A DNA stretch of 37,323 nucleotides from a virus. The position numbers were made by a program, and so were the translations under genes. Below the pieces are notes generated by a model. The model was given only the letters and a program-made list of their open reading frames with translations, was not told the DNA's origin and did not search any database. Below, one piece after another: positions 14,733 through 32,619 of this stretch (its first letter is position 1; each line of letters opens with the position of its first letter). The stretch is from the IMG/VR virus record IMGVR_UViG_3300027719_000284, positions 1 through 37,323 of that record; one strand, given 5' to 3'.

Positions 14733-16772
14733 ATGGCTGGCGAATGCAAGGTTACGGCGGGACAGGTGTTCAACGAGCTGGGCGACACGGTCACCACCAA
14801 GAAGCTGAACGACCTGGGTAAGCCCGTGGTCGAGGTGGAGGACGGGGCGATTTCGCTGGCGAAGCTGGCTCCGGGGCTGGAGTTGACGGCCGATTTCCTG
14901 GGCGAGAACAGCGTCGGGGCGAAGCAGTTGGCGACGGACGCCGTGGACGAGGACGCCATATTGGCGAAGGCGGTGAGCGACGACAAGCTGGCTGACGACG
15001 CCGTGACGGCTAGGGCTATCGAGGACGGCGCCGTGGGGACCATCGCCATCGAGGACGGGGCGGTGACCGGTGACAAGTTGGCGGCCTCGCTGAAGGCGTC
15101 GTTGCCCGCGGTGGAGCGGATCGACAAGGGCGGGGACTGGTCGGCGGCCGAGGTTTGGAGCCCCTCGCTGGCGCAGGCCTCGGCGGGGATTCCGCCGCTG
15201 GTGCAGGTCTACGCCAACACCTCCAACACGAAAGAACTGACGCTGGACGCCGCGGGGAAGCTGGCCTTAGAGGACTTCAAAAACTGCGGGTCCGAGACTA
15301 TCGCCACGTTCAAGGTGTCCGACGGGGCGACCGGGCGGTTCCAGAACGCCACGCCCGCCGACTTGACGCTGGGGGCGGGCGGGATGATGCTGAAGGTCGC
15401 GCCGGGGTGCCGGGTGGAGTTCGGGACGGAGATTCGCCACATCAAGAGCGTGGCGTCGGACAAGATGACGGTGGAGCTTTCGGCGACGGTGGTGGACGGC
15501 TCGGCGGTGACGGGGATCTTCGGCATGGCGGTGTCGGACGGGCAACTGCGGCCGGAGTCGACGCTGGGGGCGGGCACGGACGAGGCGAAACCCTCGTTGG
15601 ACGCCGCGGGCTGCGTGGGGCTGTGGCCGCACCAGGTGACGAAGGACAAGCTCTACTACGCTTTCGACGCCGACCGGGATTTGCTCGGAAAGTTCGCCAA
15701 CTCCGAGTTGGGCGGGTTCAACGGTTACGCGGCTTCCTGGAAAGCGGGGAAGGTGAACGCCTTGGCCGTGGACCTGGGGACGGAGAAGACCATCGTGACG
15801 TTCCGGCTGTTCAACTACCACGACGAGACCAGCGCGGGCAAGGCCATCAATCTCGACTACGGAATCAAGCAGTTCGTGCTTTACGGGACGAACGACCCGG
15901 ACAAGTGGGACGCTTTCGCGGACAAGGAGACCAAGACCAGCATTCCGTTGACGGGGTGGGACGCCATCGGCGGCGCGCCGAGCGCCTATGCCGCGGCCCG
16001 CTACGACGACACCAAGGAGGAGGAGGAGAACTGGCAGGAGTTCAGCGTCGCCACGCCGAAGTCATACCGTTACTACGCGGTGAAGGTCCTGAGCAACTTC
16101 AAGACCTCGACGGGGTGGTGGGGGTTCCGCCGGGCGATGTTCATGGCGGGCGACGTGATCGCGGTCAACGGGCAGTGGATGGCGGCGACGACCTCGGCGA
16201 CGGGGCAGCTCGCCACGGGCGAGGCTCCGACCGATTGCTCCGACGTGACGGAGAACGAGAACATCGTCTCCGGGAACCTGCTGCGCTACGCCGTGAACGG
16301 GATCGGGGCGACGGAGACGGCCAAGAATTGGAAGGTTTGGCACGCCGGAGCCTGGCGGATCATCGCCAGCAACCAGATCGCCGATCACGGTGTTGCTGGC
16401 GACGAGGGGAAATGGTACTACCAGGCGGACGCCGCGGGGACGTGGGTGAAATGCAGCGTCGAGGCGGATGAGCGGCTTTGTTTGGCTGAGGCGATGAAGG
16501 TGGCCAACAACCAGATGCCGAAGGCGACGATGCTGGACATCAACGGCGGCTGGGCGTCGCTGACCGGGGCGGGGACGCAGTTGAACCTGGCGGTCATTGC
16601 CTGGCCGCTCGACGCCTCCTGTTCGCTGGCGGGCGTCGAGTTCAACAGCCCGGTGTTCGAGCGGCTGTCGGACAGCGGCTACAGCGTGAAGGTCACGGAC
16701 GGGGCGGGACTCATCTTGACGAATGGGGCGACGAACGTGAAGTCCCCAAGAGTGGTGGTGGTTCATGGTTGA
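14733..16772 (+). CDS. Tail fibre with repeat stalk and discoidin-like domain
   Basis: 679-aa fibre. Residues about 33-120 form a stalk of degenerate repeats built on DGAISLAKLA, DAVTARAIEDGAV and DGAVTGDKLAAS, typical of trimeric phage fibres. Residues about 300-475 resemble an F5/8 type C (discoidin) carbohydrate-binding domain: NALAVDLGTEKTIVTFRLFN, FVLYGTNDPDKWDAFAD, WQEFSVATPKSYRYYAVKVL and TGWWGFRRAMFM, the usual succession of strands ending in an aromatic-arginine strand. The C-terminal 200 residues are another beta-rich module. This would bind surface sugar on the host. It overlaps the GNAT gene by 8 nt. Confidence 0.75.
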   Translation: MAGECKVTAGQVFNELGDTVTTKKLNDLGKPVVEVEDGAISLAKLAPGLELTADFLGENSVGAKQLATDAVDEDAILAKAVSDDKLADDAVTARAIEDGAVGTIAIEDGAVTGDKLAASLKASLPAVERIDKGGDWSAAEVWSPSLAQASAGIPPLVQVYANTSNTKELTLDAAGKLALEDFKNCGSETIATFKVSDGATGRFQNATPADLTLGAGGMMLKVAPGCRVEFGTEIRHIKSVASDKMTVELSATVVDGSAVTGIFGMAVSDGQLRPESTLGAGTDEAKPSLDAAGCVGLWPHQVTKDKLYYAFDADRDLLGKFANSELGGFNGYAASWKAGKVNALAVDLGTEKTIVTFRLFNYHDETSAGKAINLDYGIKQFVLYGTNDPDKWDAFADKETKTSIPLTGWDAIGGAPSAYAAARYDDTKEEEENWQEFSVATPKSYRYYAVKVLSNFKTSTGWWGFRRAMFMAGDVIAVNGQWMAATTSATGQLATGEAPTDCSDVTENENIVSGNLLRYAVNGIGATETAKNWKVWHAGAWRIIASNQIADHGVAGDEGKWYYQADAAGTWVKCSVEADERLCLAEAMKVANNQMPKATMLDINGGWASLTGAGTQLNLAVIAWPLDASCSLAGVEFNSPVFERLSDSGYSVKVTDGAGLILTNGATNVKSPRVVVVHG

Positions 16773-17262
16773 GCAAAAGAAACTGGAGCTGGCGCGGCTG
16801 GCGTGGTCGGAGACGACCTGGGATTTTTTGGTGAAACTGCGTTTCATCCCGGAGATCGACGGACACATGGAGCAGAGCGAGCGGGAATGGTTCGGCGTCT
16901 GGCTCGACCGGGCGTTGCGGAGCCCCAAGTCGGTGTTCTTGGCGGGCTACGCCGACGGGGAGTTTTGCGGGGTGTTCTTCGCCACGCAGCACCATCCCCA
17001 CAGCTACGAGTGCCACTTCATCTTCAGACCCGGGACGGAGTTTCGCCGCTGGTCGGTGCCGCTGGGGCGGATGGCCGTCGAGGAGTTTTGGCGGATCGCC
17101 CCGGATATCACGCACGTTTTTAGCTACACGCCGGCGGCGAACTTGACAGCGTGCCGGGCGTGTGCTCTAATAGGGTTCGAGAAGGTGGGCGTTATTCCCG
17201 GCTACGCCATCATGAAGGACGGGGTTTCGGACGTGAACATCTATTTGAATAGGAGGAAGTAG
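16765..17262 (+). CDS. GNAT-fold protein in the virion operon
   Basis: 165-aa protein with the secondary-structure order of GNAT acyltransferases: N-terminal helices, a central strand pair (SVFLAGYADGEFCGVFFATQ, about 54-73), a helix (LGRMAVEEFWRI, near 98), then THVFSYTPAANLTACRACAL and GFEKVGVIPGYAI, matching the last conserved GNAT helix/strand where an acetylated-side substrate would sit. A clear acetyl-CoA loop (Q/RxxGxG/A) is missing, so it may be non-catalytic. T7 gp13, encoded just before the T7 internal virion proteins, is also a GNAT-fold protein, and this gene has the same relative place. Its ATGGTTGA overlap with the fibre gene implies coupled translation. Confidence 0.7.
   Translation: MVEQKKLELARLAWSETTWDFLVKLRFIPEIDGHMEQSEREWFGVWLDRALRSPKSVFLAGYADGEFCGVFFATQHHPHSYECHFIFRPGTEFRRWSVPLGRMAVEEFWRIAPDITHVFSYTPAANLTACRACALIGFEKVGVIPGYAIMKDGVSDVNIYLNRRK
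17143..17171 (+). promoter_or_regulatory. Consensus promoter inside the GNAT gene
   Basis: TTGACA (17143-17148), a 17-nt spacer and TCTAAT (17166-17171) give a near-ideal sigma70-type promoter. It lies in the last 120 nt of the GNAT coding region and points at the three ejection-protein genes that begin at 17265. Transcription would start near 17178, leaving an 85-nt leader. Confidence 0.6.
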
Positions 17263-17264
17263 CC

Positions 17265-18236
17265 ATGGGGATGACCGGAGGGAGTTTTCTAGGGGACAAC
17301 GCCGGGGATTACGCGGGCTACGACACGCCCCGCGCCCCGCAGTTCAAGGACGCGGTGAACCAGGTGCGGCGGGGCATGCCGAACATGGTGGCGCTGGAGA
17401 AGGATTACGCCCCGCAGCTCAACCAGATGCAGTACGACCAGATGGCGCGGTTCGCCCCGATGTACAACGAGTTGACCAACAAGATGACCGAGGCGCAACG
17501 CGGTTCAGACCTGGGGGCGGTGCGGAGCTGGGGCGGCAAATACAAGGCGGCCATGGAGGACGCCAACCCGACGGAGACGGCGATGAAGGCCGAGTTGGGC
17601 AAGCAGATCGGCGACGACCTGAAGCTCGGCGGGGACATTGGCGGCGACCTGGGGCGGGAGATGACGCAGGGCATCCGGGCGGGGCAGTCGGCGCGGGGCA
17701 TGACACAGGGCAACGCCCCGGTGACGGCGGAGGCCCTCGGCCGCGGCAGTCTGAGCCAGAGCCTCAAGGGCCAGCGGCAGAACGACGCCTCTAGCTACAT
17801 GAACATGCCGCACTTCGACGCCTTCAACGCCGTGCTCGGCAGGAGCGCGCAGCAGCAGGTCGAGGGCTCGCAAGGGAACTTCGGGAACCGGGGCCAGGGC
17901 CTCGGCGGGATGGTGGGCAACGTGCTGGGGCAGTCGAGCAACAACTGGGCGACGAAGGCCAAGATCGGCAATGCGAACAACGCCGCCAGCAACAACCGCA
18001 ACTACCAGAACTGGGAGTTCGACAACGAGAAGACGCCGATCAGTTTGCTCAGTAAGGGGTGGGGGATGGTATCGCCTTTGGCTGGGGGATTCATGAGCGG
18101 CATGGGGAGCGGCATGGGTAGTTCGGCCTGGGGGTCGATGTCCAGCGGAGGAGGAGGAGCCGGCGGTGGCTCTGGTGGCGGGTTCACGCCCTATGTCGAT
18201 AGTTGGGGTGACACGCATATCGGGCATCCGGGCTGA
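17265..18236 (+). CDS. Putative internal virion (ejection) protein 1
   Basis: 323-aa protein with a strong ribosome site (AGGAGG, 17251-17256). The N-terminal half is helical and rich in Q, M and N (YAPQLNQMQYDQMARFAPMY, about 45-64). The C-terminal part is glycine/serine-rich with low complexity, including a tandem SGMG SGMG encoded by a 12-nt DNA repeat (18095-18118), and a possible hydrophobic segment around 266-285. It is the first of three consecutive genes of increasing size behind the GNAT gene, like T7 gp14-gp15-gp16. The role as ejection protein is inferred from order and composition. Confidence 0.6.
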   Translation: MGMTGGSFLGDNAGDYAGYDTPRAPQFKDAVNQVRRGMPNMVALEKDYAPQLNQMQYDQMARFAPMYNELTNKMTEAQRGSDLGAVRSWGGKYKAAMEDANPTETAMKAELGKQIGDDLKLGGDIGGDLGREMTQGIRAGQSARGMTQGNAPVTAEALGRGSLSQSLKGQRQNDASSYMNMPHFDAFNAVLGRSAQQQVEGSQGNFGNRGQGLGGMVGNVLGQSSNNWATKAKIGNANNAASNNRNYQNWEFDNEKTPISLLSKGWGMVSPLAGGFMSGMGSGMGSSAWGSMSSGGGGAGGGSGGGFTPYVDSWGDTHIGHPG

Positions 18237-18259: not shown

Positions 18260-19114
18260 ATGGGACTTTTAAGCAGCGTGGGAGAGAACCAGCCGGGGCA
18301 GTCGGGCGCGCTCGTCAAGGGCGACAACTGGTATAACCGCAACGTCCAGCCGGTGGCGGCGAGCGACACGGCGCAGGGCTTGTTCAAGGGGGTCGGCCGG
18401 ACGCTGCAATTGCTGGCGGCGAACCGTCCGGGGCAGTCGCAGAAGTTGCAGATGCAGTTCAATGGCGAGGATCAGGAGGCGCAGCAAAACGCCCTCGACC
18501 GGGCGTTACGGCAACAGGAGAACGCCAGCAGCCGGGACTTGAGGATGGATTTGGAAGAGTTCGGCGCGGACAGGGCGGACGCCAGGCAGAGCAACGCCAA
18601 CACCAGCGCGGACGCCCGGCAAGAGAAGGTGTTCCAGAACCAGAACCAGCAGGACGCCAATCGGCTCGCCCGTCAGGACGCAAAAGCGAAAGAGAAATTG
18701 AGGCGAGAGCTGGATAAACGCAATCTGGACTTGCAGGCGCAATTGATCGACGTGGAGACGAGGCGGGCGGGGAAACCGCTTTTTGGCCGAGTCGACGACG
18801 ACAATTATGATCTTGCGCTCGACCATTACGCCAAGCAAAGAGCTGTCCTTGACAAAGCCATGGCCGAACAGAACGCCGCGGTTGGCGTGGCGGATCGGAC
18901 GGGCAAGGCACAATTGAACGCGGAGCGGCAAAAGCTTCTACAGGCGAGGACGGCGGCGGCCAAGGCGGCGGCCAACAAGGATGAGACGCAAGCTAGGCTT
19001 TGGACGCAGGAGGCTCCGGGCGGAGCGCAGCCGCCGCAATCGGCGCAGCCAGGCGGGCAGGCTACGCCCTTCGCCAAGTGGTACGACCAGCGCAGCAAAT
19101 TTCCGGGGCAGTGA
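18260..19114 (+). CDS. Putative internal virion (ejection) protein 2, coiled coil
   Basis: 284-aa protein starting behind GGAGG (18251-18255). From about residue 65 onward it is almost entirely charged helix: repeated asparagine/aspartate/glutamine/arginine segments (QNALDRALRQQENASSRDLR; RLARQDAKAKEKLRRELDKR) with long coiled-coil potential, and a short globular break at VDDDNYDLALDHY (about 177-189). The C-terminal 45 residues are proline/glutamine-rich. Long helical proteins of this kind form the ejection conduit in T7-like phages. No sequence motif proves it. Confidence 0.6.
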   Translation: MGLLSSVGENQPGQSGALVKGDNWYNRNVQPVAASDTAQGLFKGVGRTLQLLAANRPGQSQKLQMQFNGEDQEAQQNALDRALRQQENASSRDLRMDLEEFGADRADARQSNANTSADARQEKVFQNQNQQDANRLARQDAKAKEKLRRELDKRNLDLQAQLIDVETRRAGKPLFGRVDDDNYDLALDHYAKQRAVLDKAMAEQNAAVGVADRTGKAQLNAERQKLLQARTAAAKAAANKDETQARLWTQEAPGGAQPPQSAQPGGQATPFAKWYDQRSKFPGQ

Positions 19115-19116
19115 GC

Positions 19117-22100
19117 ATGAACTACTTCAAGGTCAACGGTGAGACGCTTTACATCGACGACAGCGATGTCCCCAAGTTCAAGGCGGCGTTGCGCCAGGAT
19201 GACAAGGTCGAGTCGGTGCATCCGAAATATGATGGCGGGGGGAACCGCTACCTGGTGCCGGAGAGCGAGCTGCCGGAGTTCCACAAGACGGCCTCCACTC
19301 ATGGGGTGGAGATGTTCGACCACCTGGTGGACGCCGTGCCGAAGGAGGGGCCGGGGCTGGGCTTGCGGGCGCTCTCGACGGCGGCGGACGCCGACAACGC
19401 GGTGTTCGGGGGCTGGCGCAAGGGCGTCGAGGCGGTCGACAGCGGCATGAAGTCGGCCGGCGACTACGCCGGGGAGAAGATCCCGTACAAGGCCATGGAG
19501 TGGATGGACAGCCCGGCGGGGAAGGCGCTGGAGTCGGGGGCGTTGAACGCCATAGCCACGGCGAACCAGGGGCCGGACGTGTTCGCAGGGGGCGTCTACG
19601 GCGGGCTCCGGGAGATCGACAAGCTCGTCAAGGGCGGCCAGTCTTCCATGCCGGAATACCGGGACATCCCCGGCAACCCTGTCAGGGAATGGGCGAAGGG
19701 CGTGGAGCCGTTGGCGGCCGAGGCCGCGGCGAAGGCTCCGCAAGTGGGGCCGATCATCTCCGAGGCGGGCAAGGGCAACTACGGCGAGGCCGCGAAGAAC
19801 CTGGGGCTGGCGGCGTTGCAGAACGCCCCGACGCAGGGGGTGAACTGGGCGTTGGCTTTGGCGGGGCATCCGGCGGCGGGCTTGAACCTGTTCGCTTTGC
19901 AGGGGGCTGGCGACGAGTACAACAAGCTGGGCGCGGCCGAGGAGCGGGGGCTGATCACGCCGACGCAGCGCAGCGTCTCCGGGGTGTTGTCCGGCGTGAC
20001 GGAGAAGTACACCGAGAGTCTGGCGTTGCCGTCAATGCTCAAGGCGTTCAAGACGATGCCGGTGGATCAGGTGGCGAAGACGGTGAACCAGGCCGTTACC
20101 CGCTCCGTGGCGAACGTCGCCAGCGTGGCCGGGACGCAGGGGGCGCAGGAGGCGGCGGCGAGTTTGACCAATGACGCCATTGAGAAGGGCGTGGGGCTGG
20201 ACGTGGGGACGCTGGGGCAGTCGTTGGAGCGGGCCGGGGACGCGGCGGCCGTCGGGGCGGCCATGGGCGGCGGTATGGCTGGCGTTGGCGCGGGGCGGCA
20301 GTTCGGGCAGGATATGCAGGGCGTCGAGCAGGAGCGGCAACGGCAACTTGACGAGGCGATGCGTTTGGACGCCAGGGAAATGAACGGCGTCGTCGACAGG
20401 CAGGACGCCACGGTCCAGGATGTCCGGGAGGGGATGCCGGTGGAGCGGGCGGCGCCGGAATTAACGCCAAGGCCGCGAGAGGCGCAAGAGGAACTGCCGC
20501 CGCCGGAATACCAGAGAGAATACACCGGGCCGAACAAGAACCGGACGAAGTCTATCCGCTACGCCATGACCGGCGAGAAGCGGCTGACCGAGCCGGAGCG
20601 GGCCGCGCTCGAGAACCCCGTGGAGGGGCCAAGCCGTAGCGTCGAGCAGATCCGGGACGCCCTCGAGTTCGGAGACCGCTACGCCGAACAGGCCGGGCCG
20701 GGCGCGCCGGTTAGGGAGTTCCATCCTAGCGGCGTCCGGGCTCCCCAGGCGGGCGACAAGATGGAATGGCGGGCGACGGCCACGCAGAAGCAGCCGTACC
20801 GCGTCGAGGTGATGCAGACCAATGAGGACGGTTCGGCCCGGGTCTTCCTGCCGCCGCATAGCCGCAAGGGGCAGGTGGCGGGGCAGTACATCGACGTGCC
20901 GGCCGCGGACTTGTCGACGCCGGACAGCGTGGCGGCGGGCCGGGCGCGGCGTGAGCGTTTGGCGACGCTCGACCCGGACGTGCGGGCGAAGGTGGAGGAG
21001 GACGCCAAGGCGTTCGACCGGGAGCTCTGGAGCTCGCCGGACTTCGTGGAACACTTCGAGCGGGAGGGCAACGGCAACCCGCAAAACAAGCAGGAGGCCA
21101 TGGGGCAAAAGCACAGCTTGCGGCGCGCCAGGCGGGCCGCGGGGGAGTTGCTGGGCGTCGAAGAGGACATGGACGATCCGGTGGTTCGGGCGCATGCGCT
21201 CACGGCGTTGCGGAATTTAACGCGAAAGACGCAGGAGACGCAAGGGACGCTAGAAGAGGATGGGGTTGATTTCGATCCGGAGACGCTGGGGGAACCTGTA
21301 AGGATTCCTGATGAGTTGCGGGAACAGGTGGCTGAAAAGGCACCTGCCGTCGACATGGGGCCAAAAGCGTTGCGCAAAGAGTTGCGGAAGAAACTAAACG
21401 TGCTCCATGCGCAACTTGGCGATTACGACCCGACGCAGGCGGTTCACAAGGTGGACGGAAAGTGGATATTCAAGAGCGTCCAAGGCGTAGACACACGGAG
21501 ACGCTACGATACAATGGATGAAGCCGCAATGGCCGCCGAGGATCATCACGGGATATGGAAGACATCATACGCCAACGCGGAGAAGCTGCACACCGAAATG
21601 GGGGAGTTCTCCACGCCCCACAGTATGGCGAGGGCGAAGGAATTTTTGGCTGTTTTAGACCCGAAGACGGAACATTCCCGATTCGGTGAGCAGGTGGCTG
21701 AAAATCCGCCTGAGGACGGCTACGCCATGGAGGAGCCGTCGCCGAAGGAGTTGCCGGAGCCGCGCTACTTCCAGAAGCCCGACGGCGACCGCCGTTTACC
21801 GGACCTGCCGGGCGAAGTGCTGGAGGCCGTCGGGAAGCCGAGGAAGCCGCTGGTGCTCAAGTGGAACATCGTGGAGAAGAACAAGTTGGGGCATCCGGAG
21901 CTGCTGGGCAAGGATCAGCGCGAACGGCTATCGGAAGCCTTGTATGGCGCCACGTTGGTCATTCAGCCCGATCCACAGGCACATCCCGACTATTATATGT
22001 TGGTGAAGCGTGACGCCAGCTCGAAACAATCGCTCGTGGAAATGAGTCTGAGTAAAGAGCAATACGAAGTAGTCAACTGGCATTCCTTGTACGGGAGGAC

Positions 22101-25100
22101 GCTTCAGCAAAAAATTGACCGGGCATTGCGAAATGGCGGCATAGTAAAAGAACTGGCTCCGGGAGGACTGCCACAGGGCTCCTCCATAACCGAGGGCGCT
22201 AGCGCCCAAGGGGCAGCAGGCAGGCTTTCTGCTCTTCGGGCCAGCTCTTCTGATGAGAGTATAGCCGCGGCTCCCGAAAAAGTCAAGGGGGAAAGCGAGA
22301 GCTATGATTACGTCGAGCAGCCGGGCGAGGCCAGGCGGCCGGCGACGGGGACGGTCGCGGCTCCGGTGCGGCGTTCGGACATGGTGCGGCTGGTGCGGGA
22401 GAAGTTGCTGGCGGTGCGGACGGGGCGGATGAGAAGCGGACGCAAGGGGATCGCCTCGGTGCTGGGACGCTACTACCCGAAGGTCCATGAGACGCGGTTG
22501 AAGTGGCGCAACGACATCGAGACGCTGGCGCACGAGTTCGGGCATTATCTCCATGAGCGGTTCCTGGGGCGCAGCAAGGGCGGCGGGCTCGGCGAGGAGA
22601 AGCTGGCGGACTGGCGCAAGGAGCTTGTGCCGCTGGCCTATGACGGGGCGCCGCAAGGGAGCCTGGCCGCCGAGGGGCTGGCGGAATTCGTGCGCCGCTG
22701 GGCGACCGACGCCGAGCATGAGGGGGTGAAGGAGAAGGCCCCGAAGTTTTTCGAGGAGTTCGAGCGGCTATTGGGGACGGACAAGGAGCTCGGCGACGCC
22801 GTGCGGGAATACCGGCGGCTGTACCAGGAGTTCCGGGCGCAGGACCCGGAGGCGCTGGTGGCGGCGAGGATACACCACGGCGAGGGAAAAGGGCTGGTCA
22901 GGTTCTTCAAGAACTTCGACATGTCCACTTTCGTGCGGCGGACGGTGACGAACCTCTGGGACGAGATTTACCCGTTGCGGGCGCGGCTGGACGCCATGGA
23001 GAAGGCCAGGGCGGACTTGTTCGGCGTCGGGGAGCGGATATGGAACGCCGCTTGGGCGTTGCGGGGCGAAGCCGGGCGGGCGGAGCTGTTCCTGCGCCAC
23101 GAGGTGTTCGGCGTCGATTTCAAGCCGGTCGAGGGCGTCAAGCCGTTGGTGAAGACGCTGGAGCCGATCGAGAAGGCCGGGGACTTGAAGCGCTTCGAGA
23201 CCTACTTGGTGGCGAAGCGCGACCTGGAGTTGGCGGGGCGGGGAAAAAGCTCGACGGAGTACGCGCTGGAGTCGGCGGCGGTGGTCGAGAAGCTCGACGG
23301 CGAGAAGCCGCATTTCAAGCAGGCGGCGGACGAGGTGCACAAGTTCAACCACACCTTGCTCGACTACGTGCGGGATAGCGGGATGCTGTCCGAGGAGGAG
23401 GCCGAGCTGGTGAAGTCCATGAATGAGCAGTACGTGCCGTTCAAGACTTGGTTCGACCCGGACACGTTGCTGCCGGACAAGGGGGGCGGCAAGCGGATGG
23501 GCGGGAACATCGCCAACCAGGGCAAGGGGATCAAGGGTATCGGAGAGGAGCGTTACCGGGAGATAGAGAGCCCGCTGGAGTCGATGGTCGAGAACACTTA
23601 TTTCCTGTTGGCGTTGGCGGACAAGAACCTAGTGAACAAGAAGCTGGCGGAGCTGGCCGAGGCCGAGGGGGCGGCGGAGTGGGTGCGGAAGTTGCCGCAG
23701 CAGAAGTTCTTCTCGCCGGCGAACGTGCAGGGGAAGGAGGCGTTGCGCTTCCTGGAGGAGAACGGGGTGGACTTGCGGAACAAGTTCAGCGCCCAGGACC
23801 TGGAGCGGCTGGCGGGCGAGCTGATGCAGGTGTTCCACAAGACGGCGCTCTACCCGAAGCCGGACGAGCATATCGTGAGCGTCTGGGACGACGGCAAGCG
23901 GCAATACTACCAGCTCGACCCGGAGCTCTACCAGGCGTTGTCGGCGGTGGACAGACAGAGCGTGGGGGTGGTCGGGGCGTTGATGCGCTTCATGAATATC
24001 CCGGTGCAGTGGATCAGGTTGGGCTCGACGTTGACGCCCTCGTTCATGGTCAAGAACTTCATGCGCGACCAGCATCAGGCCTGGCTCTACTCCGACAGCT
24101 ACGTGCCAGGGGTGGATTTCGTCCGGGGACTGGGGCATTACTTCATGAAGGACGAGGTCTACAAGGACTGGGCGAAGGGCGGCGGGGCGCACAGCATGTT
24201 CGTCTCGCCCGATCTGGAGGCGTTGCGCTCGGAGTTCCTCAAGGGAGGCAAGGGCGGCGCCGCCTATTGGGCTCGGCACCCGATGATGGGGATGCAGAAG
24301 CTTGGGGAGTTCTTCGAGATGGGGACGCGTCTGGGCATCGCCGCGAAAGAGCAGGCCAAGGCCAAGGACGAGCCGGAGGATCTCCGGGACGGCAACCGCG
24401 GCCAGCTGGAGCGGGCGGCGATACCGAGCCGAGACAACACGCTGGACTTCAGCCGCGTGGGGCGTTACGGGCGGGTGGCGAACCAGTTGATCCCGTTCTG
24501 GAACGCCAACGTCCAGGACGTGAACAAATTTTACCGGACGATGAAGGAGAACCCGAAGCGGACGGCGATCCGGGCGCTGCTGACCATGACCGTGCCAGCC
24601 GTGTTGCAAGAGCTGCTCTATCACGGCGACCCCGACTATGACGACATCCCGGAGTGGCAGAAGAACCTCTTCCATATCGTCCGACTGCCGGAGTTCATGG
24701 CGGCGCCGTGGCGGAAGCTGTGGGGATTGCCTGAGGGCCAGCATGTCTACGTGAGGGCGTTCCCGAAGATATTTTTTGTCAACGCCTTGTTCGGCAACGT
24801 TCCCCGGGCGGCCTTGGCGTCGATGATGGACGAGGCGAAGAGCAAGGATGGCGACTTCCTGAAGAAGCAGGGGGCGGCGCTCGGCGGCGTGGTGAGCCAG
24901 ACCTTCGTTCCAGCTATGGCGTTGCCGTTCCTTGAGCTGTGGGCGAACCGCAGCATGTTCTTCGGGACGGAGATCAAGCCGCCGGACATCGACGGGCGCG
25001 AGGCGCAGGACCAGTACACGGCCTTCACCAGCGCGGCCGTCCGGGAGACGACGGCGATTCTCAACAAGGCGACGGGGGGGGCGGTGGACATCAGCCCGGC

Positions 25101-25698
25101 GGCGTTGCAGCACGTGATCGTCGGCTACACGTCGAGCGTCGGCAAGTTCGCGCTCGACGCCGCCGACCAGGTGGTGGAACGGCTCGACAAGGGCATGGCC
25201 GGGGCGAAGCCGTTGCGGATGCCCTGGGATTATCCGGTGTTGAAGAACATCGCCTTCGACCAGAGCCGGACGCGGGGGCTGGAATTGTTTTACGCCGCGT
25301 ATGATCACGCCGCGCGGATGGTCGAGAGCTACAACTACAACACCAAAACCGGGGACGGGGAGCGGGTGGCACAGATCGAGGGCGAGCGGGATTTCGAAAA
25401 ATACGTGCATGTCGGCGAGGACGGCAAAGCGCGGAACAAGTTGGCGGCGCTGGGCAAGGAGATATCGGCGTTGCGGCGCGAGGCGCACGTGGTCGGCGCG
25501 GACGCCGACGGCGCCTGGAAAGGCAACGCCTCCGGGCAACGCCGGGAGATGAACCGGCTGCTCTACGACCTCGCCAAGAAGGCCCGGACGATGGACGCCG
25601 CGGCGGCCGAGAGCGAGCCGGAGGGCAGGAAGAAGAAAGGCCACGGCCTGCGGATGCCGGGAATGAAAATGCCGTCCTTAAAAATGCCGGGTTTTTGA
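19117..25698 (+). CDS. Giant polyvalent ejection protein: HExxH protease, PBECR-like, LPD38-like
   Basis: 2193-aa multidomain protein, last of the three ejection-type genes. I use the ATG at 19117; an in-frame earlier start at 19000 lies inside the preceding gene. In order: a small N-terminal domain (1-70); an alanine/glycine-rich helical domain about 262-391, as in other large polyvalent phage proteins; a module at about 742-858 bracketed by a direct repeat; a PBECR-like nuclease domain about 905-1010, with ALYGATLVIQPDPQAHPDYY and VVNWHSL (H989), followed by the tail LSALRASSSDESI; a gluzincin-type metallopeptidase motif HEFGH (1139-1143) with EGLAEF (1186-1191) as candidate third-ligand region; and a long C-terminal part resembling LPD38 (TPSFMVKNFMRDQHQAW near 1641; NQLIPFWNANVQDVNKFY near 1790). 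The end is basic (RKKKGHGLRM). It likely enters the host with the DNA. Domain names are from memory of the families. Confidence 0.8.
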   Translation: MNYFKVNGETLYIDDSDVPKFKAALRQDDKVESVHPKYDGGGNRYLVPESELPEFHKTASTHGVEMFDHLVDAVPKEGPGLGLRALSTAADADNAVFGGWRKGVEAVDSGMKSAGDYAGEKIPYKAMEWMDSPAGKALESGALNAIATANQGPDVFAGGVYGGLREIDKLVKGGQSSMPEYRDIPGNPVREWAKGVEPLAAEAAAKAPQVGPIISEAGKGNYGEAAKNLGLAALQNAPTQGVNWALALAGHPAAGLNLFALQGAGDEYNKLGAAEERGLITPTQRSVSGVLSGVTEKYTESLALPSMLKAFKTMPVDQVAKTVNQAVTRSVANVASVAGTQGAQEAAASLTNDAIEKGVGLDVGTLGQSLERAGDAAAVGAAMGGGMAGVGAGRQFGQDMQGVEQERQRQLDEAMRLDAREMNGVVDRQDATVQDVREGMPVERAAPELTPRPREAQEELPPPEYQREYTGPNKNRTKSIRYAMTGEKRLTEPERAALENPVEGPSRSVEQIRDALEFGDRYAEQAGPGAPVREFHPSGVRAPQAGDKMEWRATATQKQPYRVEVMQTNEDGSARVFLPPHSRKGQVAGQYIDVPAADLSTPDSVAAGRARRERLATLDPDVRAKVEEDAKAFDRELWSSPDFVEHFEREGNGNPQNKQEAMGQKHSLRRARRAAGELLGVEEDMDDPVVRAHALTALRNLTRKTQETQGTLEEDGVDFDPETLGEPVRIPDELREQVAEKAPAVDMGPKALRKELRKKLNVLHAQLGDYDPTQAVHKVDGKWIFKSVQGVDTRRRYDTMDEAAMAAEDHHGIWKTSYANAEKLHTEMGEFSTPHSMARAKEFLAVLDPKTEHSRFGEQVAENPPEDGYAMEEPSPKELPEPRYFQKPDGDRRLPDLPGEVLEAVGKPRKPLVLKWNIVEKNKLGHPELLGKDQRERLSEALYGATLVIQPDPQAHPDYYMLVKRDASSKQSLVEMSLSKEQYEVVNWHSLYGRTLQQKIDRALRNGGIVKELAPGGLPQGSSITEGASAQGAAGRLSALRASSSDESIAAAPEKVKGESESYDYVEQPGEARRPATGTVAAPVRRSDMVRLVREKLLAVRTGRMRSGRKGIASVLGRYYPKVHETRLKWRNDIETLAHEFGHYLHERFLGRSKGGGLGEEKLADWRKELVPLAYDGAPQGSLAAEGLAEFVRRWATDAEHEGVKEKAPKFFEEFERLLGTDKELGDAVREYRRLYQEFRAQDPEALVAARIHHGEGKGLVRFFKNFDMSTFVRRTVTNLWDEIYPLRARLDAMEKARADLFGVGERIWNAAWALRGEAGRAELFLRHEVFGVDFKPVEGVKPLVKTLEPIEKAGDLKRFETYLVAKRDLELAGRGKSSTEYALESAAVVEKLDGEKPHFKQAADEVHKFNHTLLDYVRDSGMLSEEEAELVKSMNEQYVPFKTWFDPDTLLPDKGGGKRMGGNIANQGKGIKGIGEERYREIESPLESMVENTYFLLALADKNLVNKKLAELAEAEGAAEWVRKLPQQKFFSPANVQGKEALRFLEENGVDLRNKFSAQDLERLAGELMQVFHKTALYPKPDEHIVSVWDDGKRQYYQLDPELYQALSAVDRQSVGVVGALMRFMNIPVQWIRLGSTLTPSFMVKNFMRDQHQAWLYSDSYVPGVDFVRGLGHYFMKDEVYKDWAKGGGAHSMFVSPDLEALRSEFLKGGKGGAAYWARHPMMGMQKLGEFFEMGTRLGIAAKEQAKAKDEPEDLRDGNRGQLERAAIPSRDNTLDFSRVGRYGRVANQLIPFWNANVQDVNKFYRTMKENPKRTAIRALLTMTVPAVLQELLYHGDPDYDDIPEWQKNLFHIVRLPEFMAAPWRKLWGLPEGQHVYVRAFPKIFFVNALFGNVPRAALASMMDEAKSKDGDFLKKQGAALGGVVSQTFVPAMALPFLELWANRSMFFGTEIKPPDIDGREAQDQYTAFTSAAVRETTAILNKATGGAVDISPAALQHVIVGYTSSVGKFALDAADQVVERLDKGMAGAKPLRMPWDYPVLKNIAFDQSRTRGLELFYAAYDHAARMVESYNYNTKTGDGERVAQIEGERDFEKYVHVGEDGKARNKLAALGKEISALRREAHVVGADADGAWKGNASGQRREMNRLLYDLAKKARTMDAAAAESEPEGRKKKGHGLRMPGMKMPSLKMPGF
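21325..21704 (+). repeat. 14-nt direct repeats flanking a module in the giant gene
   Basis: CAGGTGGCTGAAAA occurs at 21325-21338 and again at 21691-21704, in the same reading frame (EQVAE...EQVAE). The roughly 350 nt between them are less GC-rich and use different codons from the flanks (for example AAACTAAACGTGCTC, TACGATACAATGGAT). This is the pattern left when a domain cassette is inserted, or can be deleted, by recombination between short repeats. Confidence 0.6.
22163..22235 (+). repeat. Cluster of inverted repeats after the PBECR-like module
   Basis: Three stems follow one another within about 70 nt of coding sequence: GGAGGA/TCCTCC (from 22163), the perfect 14-nt palindrome GGGCGCTAGCGCCC (22194-22207), and AGCAG/CTGCT (from about 22216). 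They encode the low-complexity linker after the nuclease-like domain. They may mark a recombination joint or form a structured mRNA segment. Confidence 0.4.
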
Positions 25699-26877: not shown

Positions 26878-27015
26878 ATGGACGAGATGGATCAGATATT
26901 CGACGAGTGCCGGGACAAGTGCCAAGAGTTGGGGTTGCCGTGGGACATAAACAAGGCGTTGTGGGAGCTGGAAGATGATTATCCAAGAAGGGGCGATAAT
27001 CGACAAGTGGCTTGA
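26878..27015 (+). CDS. 45-aa acidic ORF, unknown
   Basis: ATG immediately follows the TAA of the Tad2-like gene. The product is MDEMDQIFDECRDKCQELGL followed by PWDINKALWELEDDYPRRGD and NRQVA. It is acidic, probably helical, with two cysteines spaced CxxxC. It overlaps the DUF1353 gene by 41 nt in another frame. A GGAGG lies 14 nt upstream, further than usual, so translation would rely on coupling. I do not recognise a family; it could be spurious. Confidence 0.45.
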   Translation: MDEMDQIFDECRDKCQELGLPWDINKALWELEDDYPRRGDNRQVA

Positions 27016-27385
27016 CGAGACCTTCTCGGAGCTGCACGACCCGGTCTCGTTCGTCGTGGAGAGCCTCGACGCCAAGATCACCATCCTGCCTGGCTTCCGC
27101 TGGGACGGGGCGAGCGTGCCGCGGTTCTTCTGGCGGTTGGTCGGCGCCCCGATGAATGGCAAGTATGTCCCCGCCGCCTTGCTGCATGACGCCCTCTACG
27201 CCTCGGAGATGTTCGCGCGGGTCAAGTGCGACGCCGTGTTCCTGGAGTTCATGGCGCAGCTCGGCGTCCCCTGGTGGCGGCGTAAGGCGATGTGGCTGGC
27301 AGTCCGGCTAGGCGGCGGCGCGGTCTGGAAGCAGCACACGGCCAGGTCCATCGCCGAGGCGAGAGAGTTGGTAAGCAAGTCATAG
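26975..27385 (+). CDS. DUF1353 family protein
   Basis: 136-aa protein with the DUF1353 signature: FRWDGASVPRFFWRLVGAP (about 42-60), followed by the histidine/aspartate motif ALLHDALYASE (about 69-79), and a C-terminal WWRRKAMWLAVRLGGGAVWK. The family is common in tailed phages and its role is not established. The start is preceded by GGGAG (26963-26967). It is the last protein gene of the plus-strand operon, ending 9 nt before the tRNA-like gene. Confidence 0.8.
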   Translation: MIIQEGAIIDKWLDETFSELHDPVSFVVESLDAKITILPGFRWDGASVPRFFWRLVGAPMNGKYVPAALLHDALYASEMFARVKCDAVFLEFMAQLGVPWWRRKAMWLAVRLGGGAVWKQHTARSIAEARELVSKS

Positions 27386-27394
27386 GATGAACAA

Positions 27395-27470
27395 GCCAGC
27401 GTAGCTCAGTTGGTAGAGCAATGCCCCCGTAATGCGAAGGTCGCCGGTTCGAGTCCGGCCGCTGGCTCCA
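27395..27470 (+). tRNA. tRNA-Thr(CGT)-like gene with aberrant anticodon arm
   Basis: A 76-nt cloverleaf with encoded CCA. The acceptor GCCAGCG/CGCTGGC pairs perfectly (discriminator T), the D-arm is GCTC/GAGC, and the T-arm is GCCGG-TTCGAGT-CCGGC. Counting from the D-arm, the anticodon is CGT (27428-27430), reading ACG (Thr). The anticodon stem is poor: ATGCC (27-31) against TGCGA (39-43) gives only two Watson-Crick pairs plus one wobble, and position 33, almost always U, is C. From the anticodon to the 3' end the sequence looks fully canonical, like bacterial tRNA-Thr(CGU). It may be a degenerate tRNA, an attachment-site relic, or an unusual functional tRNA. Confidence 0.75.
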
Positions 27471-28585: not shown

Positions 28586-28959
28586 TTCCTCAGCCCTTTC
28601 TCTTCTTGCACGCTGTAAATTATGCTATTCCAAAACCCGCCATTGTTTGTGGCATAGGCGTTCTTGTGCTTCACTTGCTCCTCATTGACAACCACCCCAT
28701 CTTTGCGCAACATCGAGACAATTTTTACCCATTCCCGATGCTGGTACATGGTCGAATCGGTTTTGCCGCAGCACTCCCGCCATCCTACTTCAACTCTCCC
28801 GGTTTTCACGAGCGTGTTGATAAAACCGGCCAAGGTGTTTGCGTTCCATCCTGAGCGTTCATTGAGTTTTGCGTCACCAGATGCGACACGTGCCATTGTT
28901 TTCTCGCTTATTCGCGAGCTGTCAAGGAATCCTTGACAGCTGCGATGGTCGTCGCTCAC
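28582..28959 (-). CDS. Unknown protein, possible winged-helix type
   Basis: 125-aa protein whose middle (LNERSGWNANTLAGFINTLV, about 32-51; then EWVKIVSMLRKDGVV, about 76-90) has helices and a turn that could be DNA-binding, followed by a polar C-terminus. The base composition is more AT-rich than the replication genes, as in the whole 28200-29100 block. A 25-nt palindrome overlaps codons 7-14. Coupled to both neighbours by ATGA. The family is not recognised. Confidence 0.55.
   Translation of the reverse strand: MSDDHRSCQGFLDSSRISEKTMARVASGDAKLNERSGWNANTLAGFINTLVKTGRVEVGWRECCGKTDSTMYQHREWVKIVSMLRKDGVVVNEEQVKHKNAYATNNGGFWNSIIYSVQEEKGLRK
28917..28941. repeat. Long near-perfect palindrome, operator-like
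   Basis: AGCTGTCAAGGA, a single A, and TCCTTGACAGCT form a perfect 12+1+12 inverted repeat within the 5' part of a minus-strand gene. Each half carries TTGACA on one strand. Immediately beside it (28904-28919) is a smaller stem, CTCGC/GCGAG. No U-run follows in either direction. The size and symmetry fit a dimeric DNA-binding protein site or a strong mRNA hairpin. Confidence 0.6.
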
Positions 28960-29420
28960 CTGACCACCTCCAGCGCCTGCTCGACCCTGGAGACATAGGC
29001 GTCCCAGGCTGCTGACTTGGCGGCGGCGATGCCTCCCTTTACTCTTGTGGTTTCGCCATTAACAAGTCGCCCAGTTATTGACCAACCGTGTTTCCCCCCG
29101 GATGGCGTAACGACAACATATCCGAGAGGTGTATGCGCGATCCACCCTCCATAGAAGTGTTTCCACTCCAGTGACTTGATCGCGTAGAGCTTGCCGACTG
29201 GGCGCAGTCCGAGCACCACATAGCCCTCCGCCAACCCGTACTGGCCGCCGGGCAGGATGTACCCGACCTCCCGCTCTAGCGTCTCGTCGTTGTCGAGATC
29301 CACAAGCCGCAGCGTGTCGCCGACGGCAAAGCCCCGGTCGTCTTTGCGCACCTCGAAGGTCTTAGCACTGGACTTGACGGCCTCGAAGTATGCGTTGTGG
29401 ATCTTGAGTTCGTGCGTCAT
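28956..29420 (-). CDS. DUF3850 (ASCH-like) protein with C-terminal extension
   Basis: 154-aa protein. Residues 1-70 match DUF3850, an ASCH/PUA-like RNA-binding fold: MTHELKIHNAYFEAVKSSAK, then TFEVRKDDRGFAVGDTLRL and GYVVLGL. Residues about 80-154 form a second module typical of small phage proteins (LEWKHFYGGWIAHTPLGYVV; ...AKSAAWDAYVSRVEQALEVV). ATG at 29420 is in an ATGA overlap. DUF3850 is usually a stand-alone protein of 70-90 residues, so this is a two-domain fusion. Its role in RNA binding or early regulation is inferred from the fold. Confidence 0.75.
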   Translation of the reverse strand: MTHELKIHNAYFEAVKSSAKTFEVRKDDRGFAVGDTLRLVDLDNDETLEREVGYILPGGQYGLAEGYVVLGLRPVGKLYAIKSLEWKHFYGGWIAHTPLGYVVVTPSGGKHGWSITGRLVNGETTRVKGGIAAAKSAAWDAYVSRVEQALEVVR

Positions 29421-29620
29421 TTCTTCAGCTCCAGTTTGTGGTTCCAGATTCTGACCCTTCCCTTCGGCGTCACCCGTATGGTCAACGCCCCGCCGCCGTG
29501 CTCCACGAGCCACGGCGTCGACAGCTCCAGCGACAAACCTTTCTCGTCGCCGTGGAGGTAGGTAAATTCCGTCTCACCGATCTTGAGGCCGTGTTCCGTG
29601 CGGATCGATTTAGGCTTCAT
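29417..29620 (-). CDS. Small beta-rich protein, unknown
   Basis: 67-aa product with alternating strands (GLKIGETEFTYLHGDEKGLS; LTIRVTPKGRVRIWNHKLEL) and no cysteine. ATGA overlaps bound it on both sides. Not recognised; it could be a small inhibitor or regulator. Confidence 0.55.
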   Translation of the reverse strand: MKPKSIRTEHGLKIGETEFTYLHGDEKGLSLELSTPWLVEHGGGALTIRVTPKGRVRIWNHKLELKK

Positions 29621-30102: not shown

Positions 30103-30965
30103 AATGCTTTCCCTGTTCTGTAAGGTGAGTTGTTGATGAGGGACTCGACCATGACCGGGGTCGCCCCGGTATTGAGCCATTCCCGGATGTCCTTGGCCGG
30201 GGGGATTATGAGCTTGTGCCGGAGCGGTAACGCCTCCGACAACGCCAGGGAGCCGTCCTGACCGGGGCGGTAGGTGGTGCCGTCGGGGCGCGTCTTTAAC
30301 GGGTCGTTGTCGGAGACGATCACCGGCGTCCCGCCATGGAGGCGGAAGAACTCCAGCAATTGCTCATGCGAGCCGCGGCAGGCGGGGCGGCCGACGGCGC
30401 GGAAGCCCAACGCCATCGCGGCGCAGGCGTCGGTCGGGCCTTCGCAGACCAACACCAGGCCAGGCTTTCCCTTGAACTCCGGCGGGTGGAAGAAGAGGCC
30501 GGAGCGCGAGCCCTTGACCGCCCATTTGTGTCCGTCGGGAGAGCGCAGCCGGACGCCGATCACCTGCCGTTCCGGGGAGCGCATCGGGAACACCCAGGCT
30601 TGGTGCCGCTTCGACCAGCCATAACACATCTTCCTGAACTCCGGGACAGGCAACCCCAATTCCCTAGCAAGTTGGTCGACAATTGCCAAAGGGGTGTTCT
30701 CGTCGCAGTCGGCGACGAACTCCAGGAAGTCGGGGGCGGGTTCCTCCGGCTCCGGTGTCGGGGCGGGGCGGGGAGCGCAACAGGGAGCATCCTTCCGCTC
30801 TCCCAGGGGGTAAGCCCAGCCGCCACAGTCCAGCCGCTTGCCGCCGGGGTTCCTCATGCAGACGGCCATAAGTCCGTCCTTGCTGACGCTGCACCAGTCG
30901 GGCTTGCCACAGATGGGGCATGGGCGCTTCCGGGTGACGTGATCCCAGTCAGAACGGGGGGGCAT
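30099..30965 (-). CDS. DNA primase (zinc-binding and TOPRIM domains)
   Basis: 288-aa primase without helicase domain. The N-terminal zinc motif has C16 and C19 (CPICGK) and further cysteines C25 and C36. The TOPRIM domain has the catalytic glutamate E175 (VLVCEGPTDACAAMAL) and the acidic pair D219/D221 (VIVSDND). A region with KDIREWLN follows near the end. Strong ribosome site GGAGG before the ATG. The gene overlaps the helicase gene by 17 nt, so the helicase and primase are separate proteins here, unlike T7 gp4. Confidence 0.88.
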   Translation of the reverse strand: MPPRSDWDHVTRKRPCPICGKPDWCSVSKDGLMAVCMRNPGGKRLDCGGWAYPLGERKDAPCCAPRPAPTPEPEEPAPDFLEFVADCDENTPLAIVDQLARELGLPVPEFRKMCYGWSKRHQAWVFPMRSPERQVIGVRLRSPDGHKWAVKGSRSGLFFHPPEFKGKPGLVLVCEGPTDACAAMALGFRAVGRPACRGSHEQLLEFFRLHGGTPVIVSDNDPLKTRPDGTTYRPGQDGSLALSEALPLRHKLIIPPAKDIREWLNTGATPVMVESLINNSPYRTGKAL

Positions 30966-32619
30966 TTTGCACCTCCAATCCGGCCGGACGTTTCCAGTCG
31001 TTGGCGACGATGGCGTCGATCAGGCGCTTGGCTTCGTCGCGGGACACGTCGCCGGGGAAGTTGTACTTCTGCAAAACCTTCGCTTGGCCGTAGGTGGCCA
31101 GACCGTTGTCGTAGCGGCGGAACTGCTCGTCGAGCAACTGCTTTTGCAGGGTGTAGGACAGCCCGGCATAGGGTATCTTCGCCTTGTCGAGCACGGCGAG
31201 CTGTTTCTCCGTGAGCGACTTCCCGGCGTCCCAGGCGCGTTCACGCCGGGGCGGGACGTTGAACACGTCAAAGGGATCGACGGTCTGGGCGTGGTATTGC
31301 GCCTTGGCGACAAGTTTGACGCGGCTGGCGGCCTCCCGGCGCTTCTTCTCCTTGACTTCCATCTCAGCCAGGGCCATGGCTTCCTCCATGTCCACGGGGC
31401 CGCCCGCCTCCTTGAGTTTTTCCCGGACGGCCTCGGCCGCTTCCTCCGAGACTTTTCCGCCGAGAATGTCGGCGGTGCTGATGAGCTTGTGCCGGCCGGA
31501 ATTGCCGCAGAAGTCGAGGATCTCGACGTGGGGCTTGGCGCTGGCGGCGATGGCGGCGCGGCGTTCGGTGATGGAGTCGAGGCCGTCGACGACGCCGGGA
31601 AGCGGGCGGGTGCCGCGCCCGGCCATCTGGGCGTAGAGCGACCGGCTCTTGGTGGGGCGGCCCATGACCACGAGGCCGACGGCGGGCTCGTCGAAGCCCT
31701 CGGTCAAGCAGCCGACGTTCACCAGGAACTGGACTTTGCCCTCGTGGTAGTCGGCAAGCGTCTGGCGACGGGCGTCGGTGGGCGTCTTGCCGCAAACCCA
31801 CGCCGCGGAGCCGCCCCGGTGCCGGTTGAAGATTTCGGCGAGCCGCTCGGCGTGTTTTACGCTGGCGGCGAAGACGAGCGTCTTCCTGTCCCCGGCGATG
31901 TCGATGGTCGGGGCGGCGATCTCCTGCAAGTTGCGCTCGTCCTCCATGAGGGCGGCGAGCTCGGCGCCGTTGAGGTCGCCCGCCGTGGTGCGCATGCCGG
32001 AGAAGTCCAGCGTGCCGACAGTGACCATGCGCTGGTGGACGGGGACGAGCCAGCCTTGGGCGATGGCGTCGGTCACCTCGTAGTCGAAGGCGACGGACTC
32101 GTAGATTTGCCCGAGCGCCTCCTCGTCGGCGCGGTCGGGGGTGGCGGTGATGCCGAGGACCTTCAGGTCGGGGTTCTGGCGGTAGTAGTCGATCACCCGC
32201 CGGTAGGAGTCGGCGGTGGCGTGGTGCGCCTCGTCGATCACCAGCAGCCCGAACTGCATCGGGTCGAACTTGGTCATGCGCCCGGCGCCGTCGCCCCCGG
32301 CGTTCTGCGTCTGGATGGAGGACACGACGACATGCGAGTGGCCGAAGAGCCCGGAGTTTTGCTCGTCGAGCCGCTGCTCGGCCATTTCCACCCCGACGGA
32401 GAAGCCCGTCATGCGCTCGATGGTGCGCTTCCCCTGGAAGATGAGCTCCTCGCGATGGGCGAGGAACATTGTCCGGGCGGGGAAGCGGCGACGCACGATG
32501 TCGGCGGCAAGCACGGTCTTGCCGCAGCCGGTCGGCAAGACGACCAGCGTTGACTGGCAGGCTTTCCAGGCGTCGACGCAGGCCAGGCTGGCGGCGGTCT
32601 GATAATCTCTTAGTTGCAT
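30949..32619 (-). CDS. Superfamily 2 DEAH-box helicase
   Basis: 556-aa ATP-dependent helicase. Walker A PTGCGKT (29-35), DEAH box (129-132, VIDEAHHA), motif III TATP (158-161), and a RecA-like second domain with SVKHAERLAEIFNRH (about 253-267) and motif VI QMAGRGTRP (331-339). The start at 32619 has GGAGGCAAAGGA upstream. The C-terminal 160 residues are lysine-rich and probably contact DNA or partners. It lies between the primase and a ParB-like gene, suggesting origin opening or fork restart. Confidence 0.88.
   Translation of the reverse strand: MQLRDYQTAASLACVDAWKACQSTLVVLPTGCGKTVLAADIVRRRFPARTMFLAHREELIFQGKRTIERMTGFSVGVEMAEQRLDEQNSGLFGHSHVVVSSIQTQNAGGDGAGRMTKFDPMQFGLLVIDEAHHATADSYRRVIDYYRQNPDLKVLGITATPDRADEEALGQIYESVAFDYEVTDAIAQGWLVPVHQRMVTVGTLDFSGMRTTAGDLNGAELAALMEDERNLQEIAAPTIDIAGDRKTLVFAASVKHAERLAEIFNRHRGGSAAWVCGKTPTDARRQTLADYHEGKVQFLVNVGCLTEGFDEPAVGLVVMGRPTKSRSLYAQMAGRGTRPLPGVVDGLDSITERRAAIAASAKPHVEILDFCGNSGRHKLISTADILGGKVSEEAAEAVREKLKEAGGPVDMEEAMALAEMEVKEKKRREAASRVKLVAKAQYHAQTVDPFDVFNVPPRRERAWDAGKSLTEKQLAVLDKAKIPYAGLSYTLQKQLLDEQFRRYDNGLATYGQAKVLQKYNFPGDVSRDEAKRLIDAIVANDWKRPAGLEVQNAPPF

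What the first reader, a model, noticed from the sequence alone, without database searches (positions are those of the whole stretch)
19117..25698. 2193-aa ejected protein joining protease, nuclease-like and LPD38-like parts
One protein carries an HEFGH...EGLAEF metallopeptidase motif, a PBECR-like nuclease/toxin domain and a long LPD38-like C-terminus. If ejected with the DNA it would deliver two potential host-targeting activities before any gene is expressed. It could be an early anti-host or anti-defence effector.
Basis: partly seen in the sequence, partly recalled or inferred. Interest (0 to 1): 0.7.

Follow-up and report, generated by a model that had tools for sequence, protein, structure and literature searches.

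The report
Phage ejection protein carrying swappable payload
A short-tailed phage encodes a giant protein that sits where such phages keep the last protein they inject with their DNA; its rear half and a built-in zinc peptidase are an old shared module, while its front half is an exchangeable cargo, so it is a new example of a known class rather than a new kind of weapon.

Summary
The ORF is real (2193 aa, 19117-25698). Two of three parts hold. HEFGH...EGLAEF is a conserved zincin of lethal-factor-like type; its zinc-site residues are kept in nearly all homologues. The C-terminus matches Pfam LPD38, which is only part of a ~900-aa, mostly helical module shared by at least 69 viral proteins. 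The 'PBECR-like nuclease' is not supported as stated: the domain is LPD13 (E 1e-16), function unknown; no PBECR model hits it and fold tests were uninformative. Gene order (P22 gp14-like, two small genes, this gene) puts it in the third-ejection-protein slot of P22-like podoviruses; an LPD38 protein of phage JC1 is in purified virions. The peptidase sits a fixed 129-160 aa before the core and follows it down the tree, whereas the domain in front is swapped (LPD13, PBECR1/3, ParB, methylase, lysozyme, Zeta toxin). So the peptidase more likely processes or matures the protein than attacks the host, and the front part is the likelier effector. Virion presence, cleavage and activity in this phage are untested. 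A new member of the polyvalent proteins (Iyer 2017).

The parts
19117..25698 (+). 2193-aa polyvalent-type ejection protein: N-terminal payload, LPD13, zincin peptidase, LPD38 C-terminal module
19117..21720 (+). N-terminal region aa 1-868, no known domain; aa 192-507 has weak similarity to the N-terminus of Vibrio phage 1.183 (BLAST E about 1e-6, not significant with phmmer)
21766..22110 (+).
   Evidence: E 1.3e-16; single-sequence model unreliable (pLDDT 42.7)
22114..22368 (+). low-complexity linker aa about 1000-1084 between LPD13 and peptidase; a possible but untested processing region
   Evidence: sequence; no or low-confidence structure
22369..22890 (+). zincin metallopeptidase domain, aa about 1085-1258, lethal-factor-like fold
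22531..22545 (+). HEFGH, aa 1139-1143: two predicted zinc-binding His and the catalytic Glu
22672..22674 (+). Glu1186 of EGLAEF, aligned with the third zinc ligand of lethal factor
22984..25611 (+). conserved mostly helical C-terminal module, aa about 1290-2165
24628..25188 (+). LPD38 Pfam match, aa 1838-2024
   Evidence: E 4.8e-26
16765..17262 (+). P22 gp14-like protein (DUF2824, phrog_651), first gene of the ejection cassette
17265..18236 (+). 323-aa protein in the P22 gp7 slot (by position only)
18260..19114 (+). 284-aa Gln/Ala-rich protein in the P22 gp20 slot (by position only)

Best explanation
This is the third ejection protein of a P22-like podovirus, built as a polyvalent protein. Inferred working: it is packaged in the head, is ejected through the tail ahead of or with the DNA, and its ~900-aa C-terminal helical (LPD38) module serves packaging and/or the trans-envelope conduit. 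The zincin just before that module cleaves the polypeptide itself (before packaging, in the head, or after entry) to free or mature the N-terminal cargo. The cargo, here an unknown N-terminus plus LPD13, is the exchangeable part and the likelier early effector. Shown: domain content, zinc-site conservation, gene slot, fixed peptidase-core spacing, swapped front domains. Inferred: virion presence in this phage, ejection, peptidase activity, self-cleavage, cargo function.
For: Gene slot: the upstream gene is P22 gp14-like. P22 gp14 itself hits DUF2824 at 6e-53 and phrog_651 at 6e-76; the window gene hits them at 1e-4 (below Pfam's cut-off) and 4.5e-6, and P22 gp14 directly at 3e-9 in a 16-protein set. 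The order gp14 / 7 / 20 / 16 of P22 matches gp14-like / 323 aa / 284 aa / this protein. LPD38 proteins follow an acetyltransferase and internal virion proteins in Pelagibacter phage Lederberg and ct8d5349; in Vibrio phage 1.183 a DNA-ejection (phrog_598) protein lies two genes upstream. Virion presence of a relative: JC1 gp69, LPD38 at 4195-4401, 51 unique peptides from CsCl virions (PMC9144972). Module: AF2 model of aa 1085-2193 with mean pLDDT 77.7, pTM 0.71; 69 viral structures at E <= 1e-3, some carried by proteins annotated RelA/SpoT, LT_GEWL, Zeta toxin, ART, methylase. Peptidase: HExxH to core distance 129-160 aa in all 14 complete carriers; presence needs 4 changes on the tree of the core against a shuffled mean of 14.6, 0 of 500 as low. 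Swapped front domains: PBECR1, PBECR3, ddrB-ParB, methylase, SLT, lysozyme, Zeta toxin. Precedents: P1 DdrB is processed before packaging (PMC5512222); P22 gp7 is annotated as cleaved by host OpdA.
Against: No virion, cleavage or activity data for this phage. The C-terminal module has no sequence similarity to P22 gp16 (phmmer E 1.1) and no solved structural relative was found. N4 vRNAP, with an HExxH domain before a large helical C-terminus, is packaged uncleaved (PMC5512222), so the domain need not self-cleave. Many relatives lack the peptidase (37 of 54 scored). No clear transmembrane segment. The tree is a quick one with a long window branch, and the relatives were found through short peptide patterns, so sampling is uneven.
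Confidence: 0.5

Rival explanations
1. The zincin is a structural or packaging domain: it binds zinc and is needed for encapsidation, but neither cleaves the protein nor attacks the host, as is known for the region holding the HExxH domain of N4 vRNAP.
For: N4 vRNAP is packaged unprocessed although the region around its HExxH domain is needed for encapsidation (PMC5512222); its HExxH domain precedes a large helical C-terminal domain, the same order as here (PMC12633501). The peptidase travels with the core, not with the cargo.
Against: The catalytic Glu is invariant in the 15-sequence alignment; a purely structural site would not need it.
Confidence: 0.25
2. The zincin is a host-targeting protease effector: it cuts a host protein, such as a defence factor, right after entry.
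For: Zincins act as effectors in toxin systems and Iyer et al. keep this option open (PMC5512222); the fold is closest to an effector protease.
Against: It is inherited with the C-terminal module at fixed spacing, whereas effector domains in these proteins are swapped. The nearest solved fold says nothing about substrate.
Confidence: 0.2
3. LPD13 is a highly diverged BECR-fold RNase, so the reader's nuclease idea is right in substance although not in family.
For: It sits in the slot that holds PBECR1 or PBECR3 in homologues L073, L055 and L065; a low-confidence model gives a helix, then three strands; it has a His near the predicted N-terminal helix and a Ser after the last predicted strand (sequence).
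Against: No PBECR model hits at E <= 10; profile score equals shuffles; model pLDDT 42.7. Iyer et al. do not list LPD13 among the LPDs that look enzymatic.
Confidence: 0.25
4. The whole protein is purely a structural ejection protein with no effector activity; the N-terminus only fills space or contacts other virion proteins.
For: Relatives of about 1200 aa with short N-termini are common.
Against: Known catalytic domains recur at the N-terminus of homologues.
Confidence: 0.2

Closest known systems
Polyvalent proteins of phages (Iyer et al. 2017, PMC5512222)
   Same: Several unrelated domains in one chain next to virion genes; zincin peptidase hub; [quoted passage not shown] LPD13.
   Different: The combination LPD13 + zincin + LPD38 was not found in any relative scanned here; the text of the paper does not discuss LPD13.
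LPD38 / DarB-like giant proteins of Bcep22-like podoviruses (JC1 gp69)
   Same: C-terminal LPD38, downstream of an acetyltransferase and virion proteins, found in virions (PMC9144972).
   Different: JC1 gp69 is 4515 aa with methylase, helicase and lytic transglycosylase-like parts; the window protein has LPD13 and a zincin instead.
Vibrio phage 1.183 and Thalassomonas phage BA3 giant proteins
   Same: Zincin plus C-terminal module alignable along about 1050 aa at 25% identity.
   Different: Vibrio phage 1.183 carries a methyltransferase in front of the zincin instead of LPD13.
Phage N4 virion RNA polymerase
   Same: Third ejection protein; HExxH domain followed by a large helical C-terminal domain (PMC12633501).
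   Different: No RNA polymerase domain here; no significant sequence or fold match to solved N4 structures.
P22 gp16 / T7 gp16
   Same: Last gene of the ejection cassette by position.
   Different: No sequence similarity to P22 gp16 and more than three times its length (609 aa).
Anthrax lethal factor catalytic domain (ATLF, zincin fold)
   Same: Zinc-site pattern and fold of the peptidase domain: VIA Z 6.0-6.8, 20-27% identity over 95-121 residues; profile E 0.0041.
   Different: Only a fold relative: no shared targeting parts, no evidence of a shared substrate; the window domain itself does not match the Pfam ATLF model.

Membership tests
Phage-type polyvalent protein | Several functionally unrelated domains in one polypeptide, from the catalogued set | tested here: met
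   LPD13 and LPD38 by Pfam, zincin by homology and conserved motif
Phage-type polyvalent protein | Encoded among virion (late) genes | tested here: met
   Terminase, capsid, tail and P22 gp14-like genes upstream
Phage-type polyvalent protein | Packaged and injected with DNA | not testable with these tools
   Only by analogy: JC1 gp69 is in virions (PMC9144972)
Zincin metallopeptidase | HExxH plus downstream Glu ligand, conserved | tested here: met
   Invariant H, E, H and E1186 in 15 homologues; one relative, L064, has Lys at the ligand Glu
Zincin metallopeptidase | Proteolytic activity | not testable with these tools
   needs purified protein
ATLF / lethal-factor-like zincin | Fold of the lethal factor catalytic domain | tested here: inconclusive
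   VIA Z 6.0-6.8 to many lethal factor entries, below the level the tool calls safe; profile E 0.0041; 5 of 15 relatives hit Pfam ATLF, the window member does not
LPD38 proteins | Match to PF18857 over its cut-off | tested here: met
   92.4 bits against a cut-off of 27
LPD13 | Match to PF18825 over its cut-off | tested here: met
   61.2 bits against a cut-off of 27
PBECR nuclease | Match to a PBECR Pfam model | tested here: not met
   No PBECR family at E <= 10
[quoted passage not shown]
   Model pLDDT 42.7; profile test no better than shuffles and of low power
Podovirus third ejection protein (P22/T7 gp16 type) | Last gene of the ejection cassette | tested here: met
   P22 gp14-like gene, two small genes, then this one
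Podovirus third ejection protein (P22/T7 gp16 type) | Sequence homology to P22 gp16 | tested here: not met
   phmmer E 1.1; no phrog_770 match
N4 virion RNA polymerase | Single-subunit RNA polymerase domain | tested here: not met
   No polymerase model in Pfam; only a phrog_2206 hit at E 0.13 over aa 313-462

The most novel reading that the evidence does not exclude
The zincin plus the ~900-aa helical module is a general delivery chassis: a third ejection protein that carries interchangeable effectors across the envelope of hosts in many phyla and frees them by its own peptidase, so that any domain found in front of it is a candidate early effector (anti-defence RNase, ParB nuclease, methylase, kinase-like toxin). 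LPD13 would then be a new, uncharacterised effector family.
Probability: 0.35. Interest if true: 0.65.

Novelty: new member of a known kind. Interest (0 to 1): 0.4.

Why it matters
Polyvalent proteins were predicted computationally in 2017, but how their cargo is delivered and what the widespread peptidase does remain open. The data here separate a conserved part (peptidase and helical module in the third-ejection-protein slot) from an exchangeable part (front domains), which turns the peptidase question into a simple mutant test and gives a rule for finding new early phage effectors: read what stands in front of the module.

Tried and rejected
Close relatives of the whole protein, of LPD13 and of the peptidase in viral contigs by exact peptide patterns: none. 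The first seven-sequence alignment had no stretch conserved enough to search with. LPD13 by tblastn in phages and plasmids: none; by family search in about 1200 genomes: one hit below the cut-off, which is a histidine kinase, so its spread was not established. LPD13 structure from a single sequence: too poor to search with. LPD13 against a PBECR2 profile: not above shuffles; controls with known PBECR1 and PBECR3 domains also failed, so no conclusion. Profile of the C-terminal module against solved structures: nothing real; Foldseek against PDB gave only noise (N4 vRNAP ranks first at E 0.18 with TM 0.07, not meaningful). Link between having the peptidase and a longer front part: raw p 1.5e-4, but only 3-4 independent pairs on the tree, so not claimed. 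Other window proteins against the relatives by tblastn: two matches only, none in the ejection cassette. Peptidase M3 as family: the hit covers only 17 residues round the HExxH motif.

Full report
What is there. The window is a 37,323-base IMG/VR virus record with podovirus-type genes: large terminase, capsid and tail genes. The ORF 19117-25698 is intact, 2193 aa, starts three bases after the last base of the previous gene's stop codon, and has GC 0.654/0.427/0.864 at the three codon positions. Pfam finds two domains: LPD13 at aa 884-998 (E 1.3e-16) and LPD38 at aa 1838-2024 (E 4.8e-26). There is no PBECR match at E <= 10.

The peptidase. HEFGH lies at aa 1139-1143 and EGLAEF at 1186-1191. HExxH alone would turn up in 8% of shuffles of this protein, the pair of motifs in 0.015%. 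The stretch around it matches giant proteins of Vibrio, Shewanella and Thalassomonas phages at 31-33% identity, E about 1e-12, and a set of prophage-like loci from bacterial genomes at E down to 1e-24. In a 15-sequence alignment both His, the first Glu, the Gly before the second His, Glu1169, Glu1186 and Gly1187 are invariant. A profile of these domains finds lethal factor as the best solved structure (E 0.0041), with HExxH on HExxH and Glu1186 on the Glu that is known (established knowledge) to be its third zinc ligand. The AlphaFold model of aa 1085-2193 (mean pLDDT 77.7) gives the same answer through VIA-align: Z 6.0-6.8, 20-27% identity over 95-121 residues, for many lethal factor entries. 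Each of these is modest; together with the invariance they make a zinc site likely. I could not measure distances in the model. Iyer et al. drew the same comparison for phage zincins (PMC5512222). One natural relative, L064 from Veillonella, has Lys where the ligand Glu should be.

The C-terminus. LPD38 is the visible tip of a larger unit. The alignment of 57 relatives runs from about aa 1290 to near the end, and the model matches 69 viral structures at E <= 1e-3, best E 3.9e-42, with up to TM 0.66/0.74 and rmsd 5.9 A over 955 columns. No solved structure was found to resemble it. The secondary structure is almost all helix and there is no clear membrane span.

The slot. The gene at 16765-17262 is like P22 gp14: P22 gp14 itself is DUF2824 and phrog_651, the window gene hits both more weakly and P22 gp14 directly at E 3e-9 in a small set. 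P22 then has genes 7, 20 and 16, its three ejection proteins. The window has a 323-aa gene, a 284-aa Gln/Ala-rich gene and the 2193-aa gene. In Pelagibacter phage Lederberg and ct8d5349 the LPD38 protein follows an acetyltransferase and an internal virion protein; in Vibrio phage 1.183 a DNA-ejection family protein lies two genes upstream. In Burkholderia phage JC1 the LPD38 protein gp69 is downstream of an acetyltransferase and virion-associated proteins and was found in CsCl-purified virions with 51 unique peptides (PMC9144972). The window protein has no sequence similarity to P22 gp16, so the statement is about the slot, not about descent.

Conserved chassis, swapped cargo. In the relatives the domains in front of the module differ: PBECR1 in L073, PBECR3 in L055 and L065, ddrB-ParB in L068, methylases in L053 and the Vibrio phage, SLT in L059, phage lysozyme in L062, Zeta toxin in three viral loci; structural matches add proteins named RelA/SpoT, ART and LT_GEWL. 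LPD13 appears in none of them and in none of about 1200 genomes searched. The peptidase behaves in the opposite way: where present it lies 129-160 aa before the core in all 14 complete proteins, and on a tree of the core its presence needs 4 changes against a shuffled mean of 14.6, with none of 500 shuffles as low. Proteins with it tend to have longer front parts, but this rests on only 3-4 independent comparisons and is not claimed.

Mechanism. The simplest reading is that the peptidase belongs to the delivery module and acts on the protein itself, and that the front part is what is delivered. P1 DdrB is processed before packaging (PMC5512222), and P22 gp7 is annotated as cleaved by the host metallopeptidase OpdA, so proteolytic maturation of ejected proteins has precedents. 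The counter-example is N4 vRNAP, whose HExxH domain precedes a large helical domain in the same order (PMC12633501) and which is packaged uncleaved (PMC5512222). Self-cleavage is therefore an inference, at about even odds.

LPD13. It occupies the position held by PBECR domains in three relatives, and the low-confidence model shows a helix followed by three strands, which would fit a BECR fold. But the model is too poor to search with, and profile comparison gave nothing.

Verdict. A real and well-formed protein; a new member, with a domain combination not seen in the relatives scanned, of the polyvalent proteins described in 2017.

Noticed in passing
L064, HExxH region near aa 854-900 of the LPD38 protein (L064:7058-12370): A Veillonella prophage copy has Lys instead of Glu at the third zinc-ligand position (KGFAEF) while its near sister L062 keeps EGFAEF: perhaps a natural loss of peptidase activity.
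   Followed up: no
L069:8282-11401: The peptidase-LPD38 ORF begins only about 15 aa before HExxH; the front part is missing or on a separate ORF.
   Followed up: no
L043:8498-12766: An HExxH motif (aa 767) lies inside, not before, the C-terminal module, with a different spacing.
   Followed up: no
27395-27470: tRNA-Tyr (gta) just downstream of the late gene block, where GC skew changes sign; it could be a boundary or an attachment site.
   Followed up: no
26975-27385: DUF1353 protein (Pfam E 1e-22), listed in PHROGs as tail assembly chaperone.
   Followed up: no
28956-29513 (- strand): DUF3850/ASCH-type small protein (E 2e-22) with a match in locus L073.
   Followed up: no
30949-32619 (- strand): SF2 helicase with ResIII and SWI2/SNF2 matches, probably the replication helicase.
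   Followed up: no
NC_002371, gene 7 (L110:9369-10058): P22 ejection protein gp7 is annotated as cleaved by the host protease OpdA, a useful precedent for maturation of ejection proteins by a metallopeptidase.
   Followed up: partly
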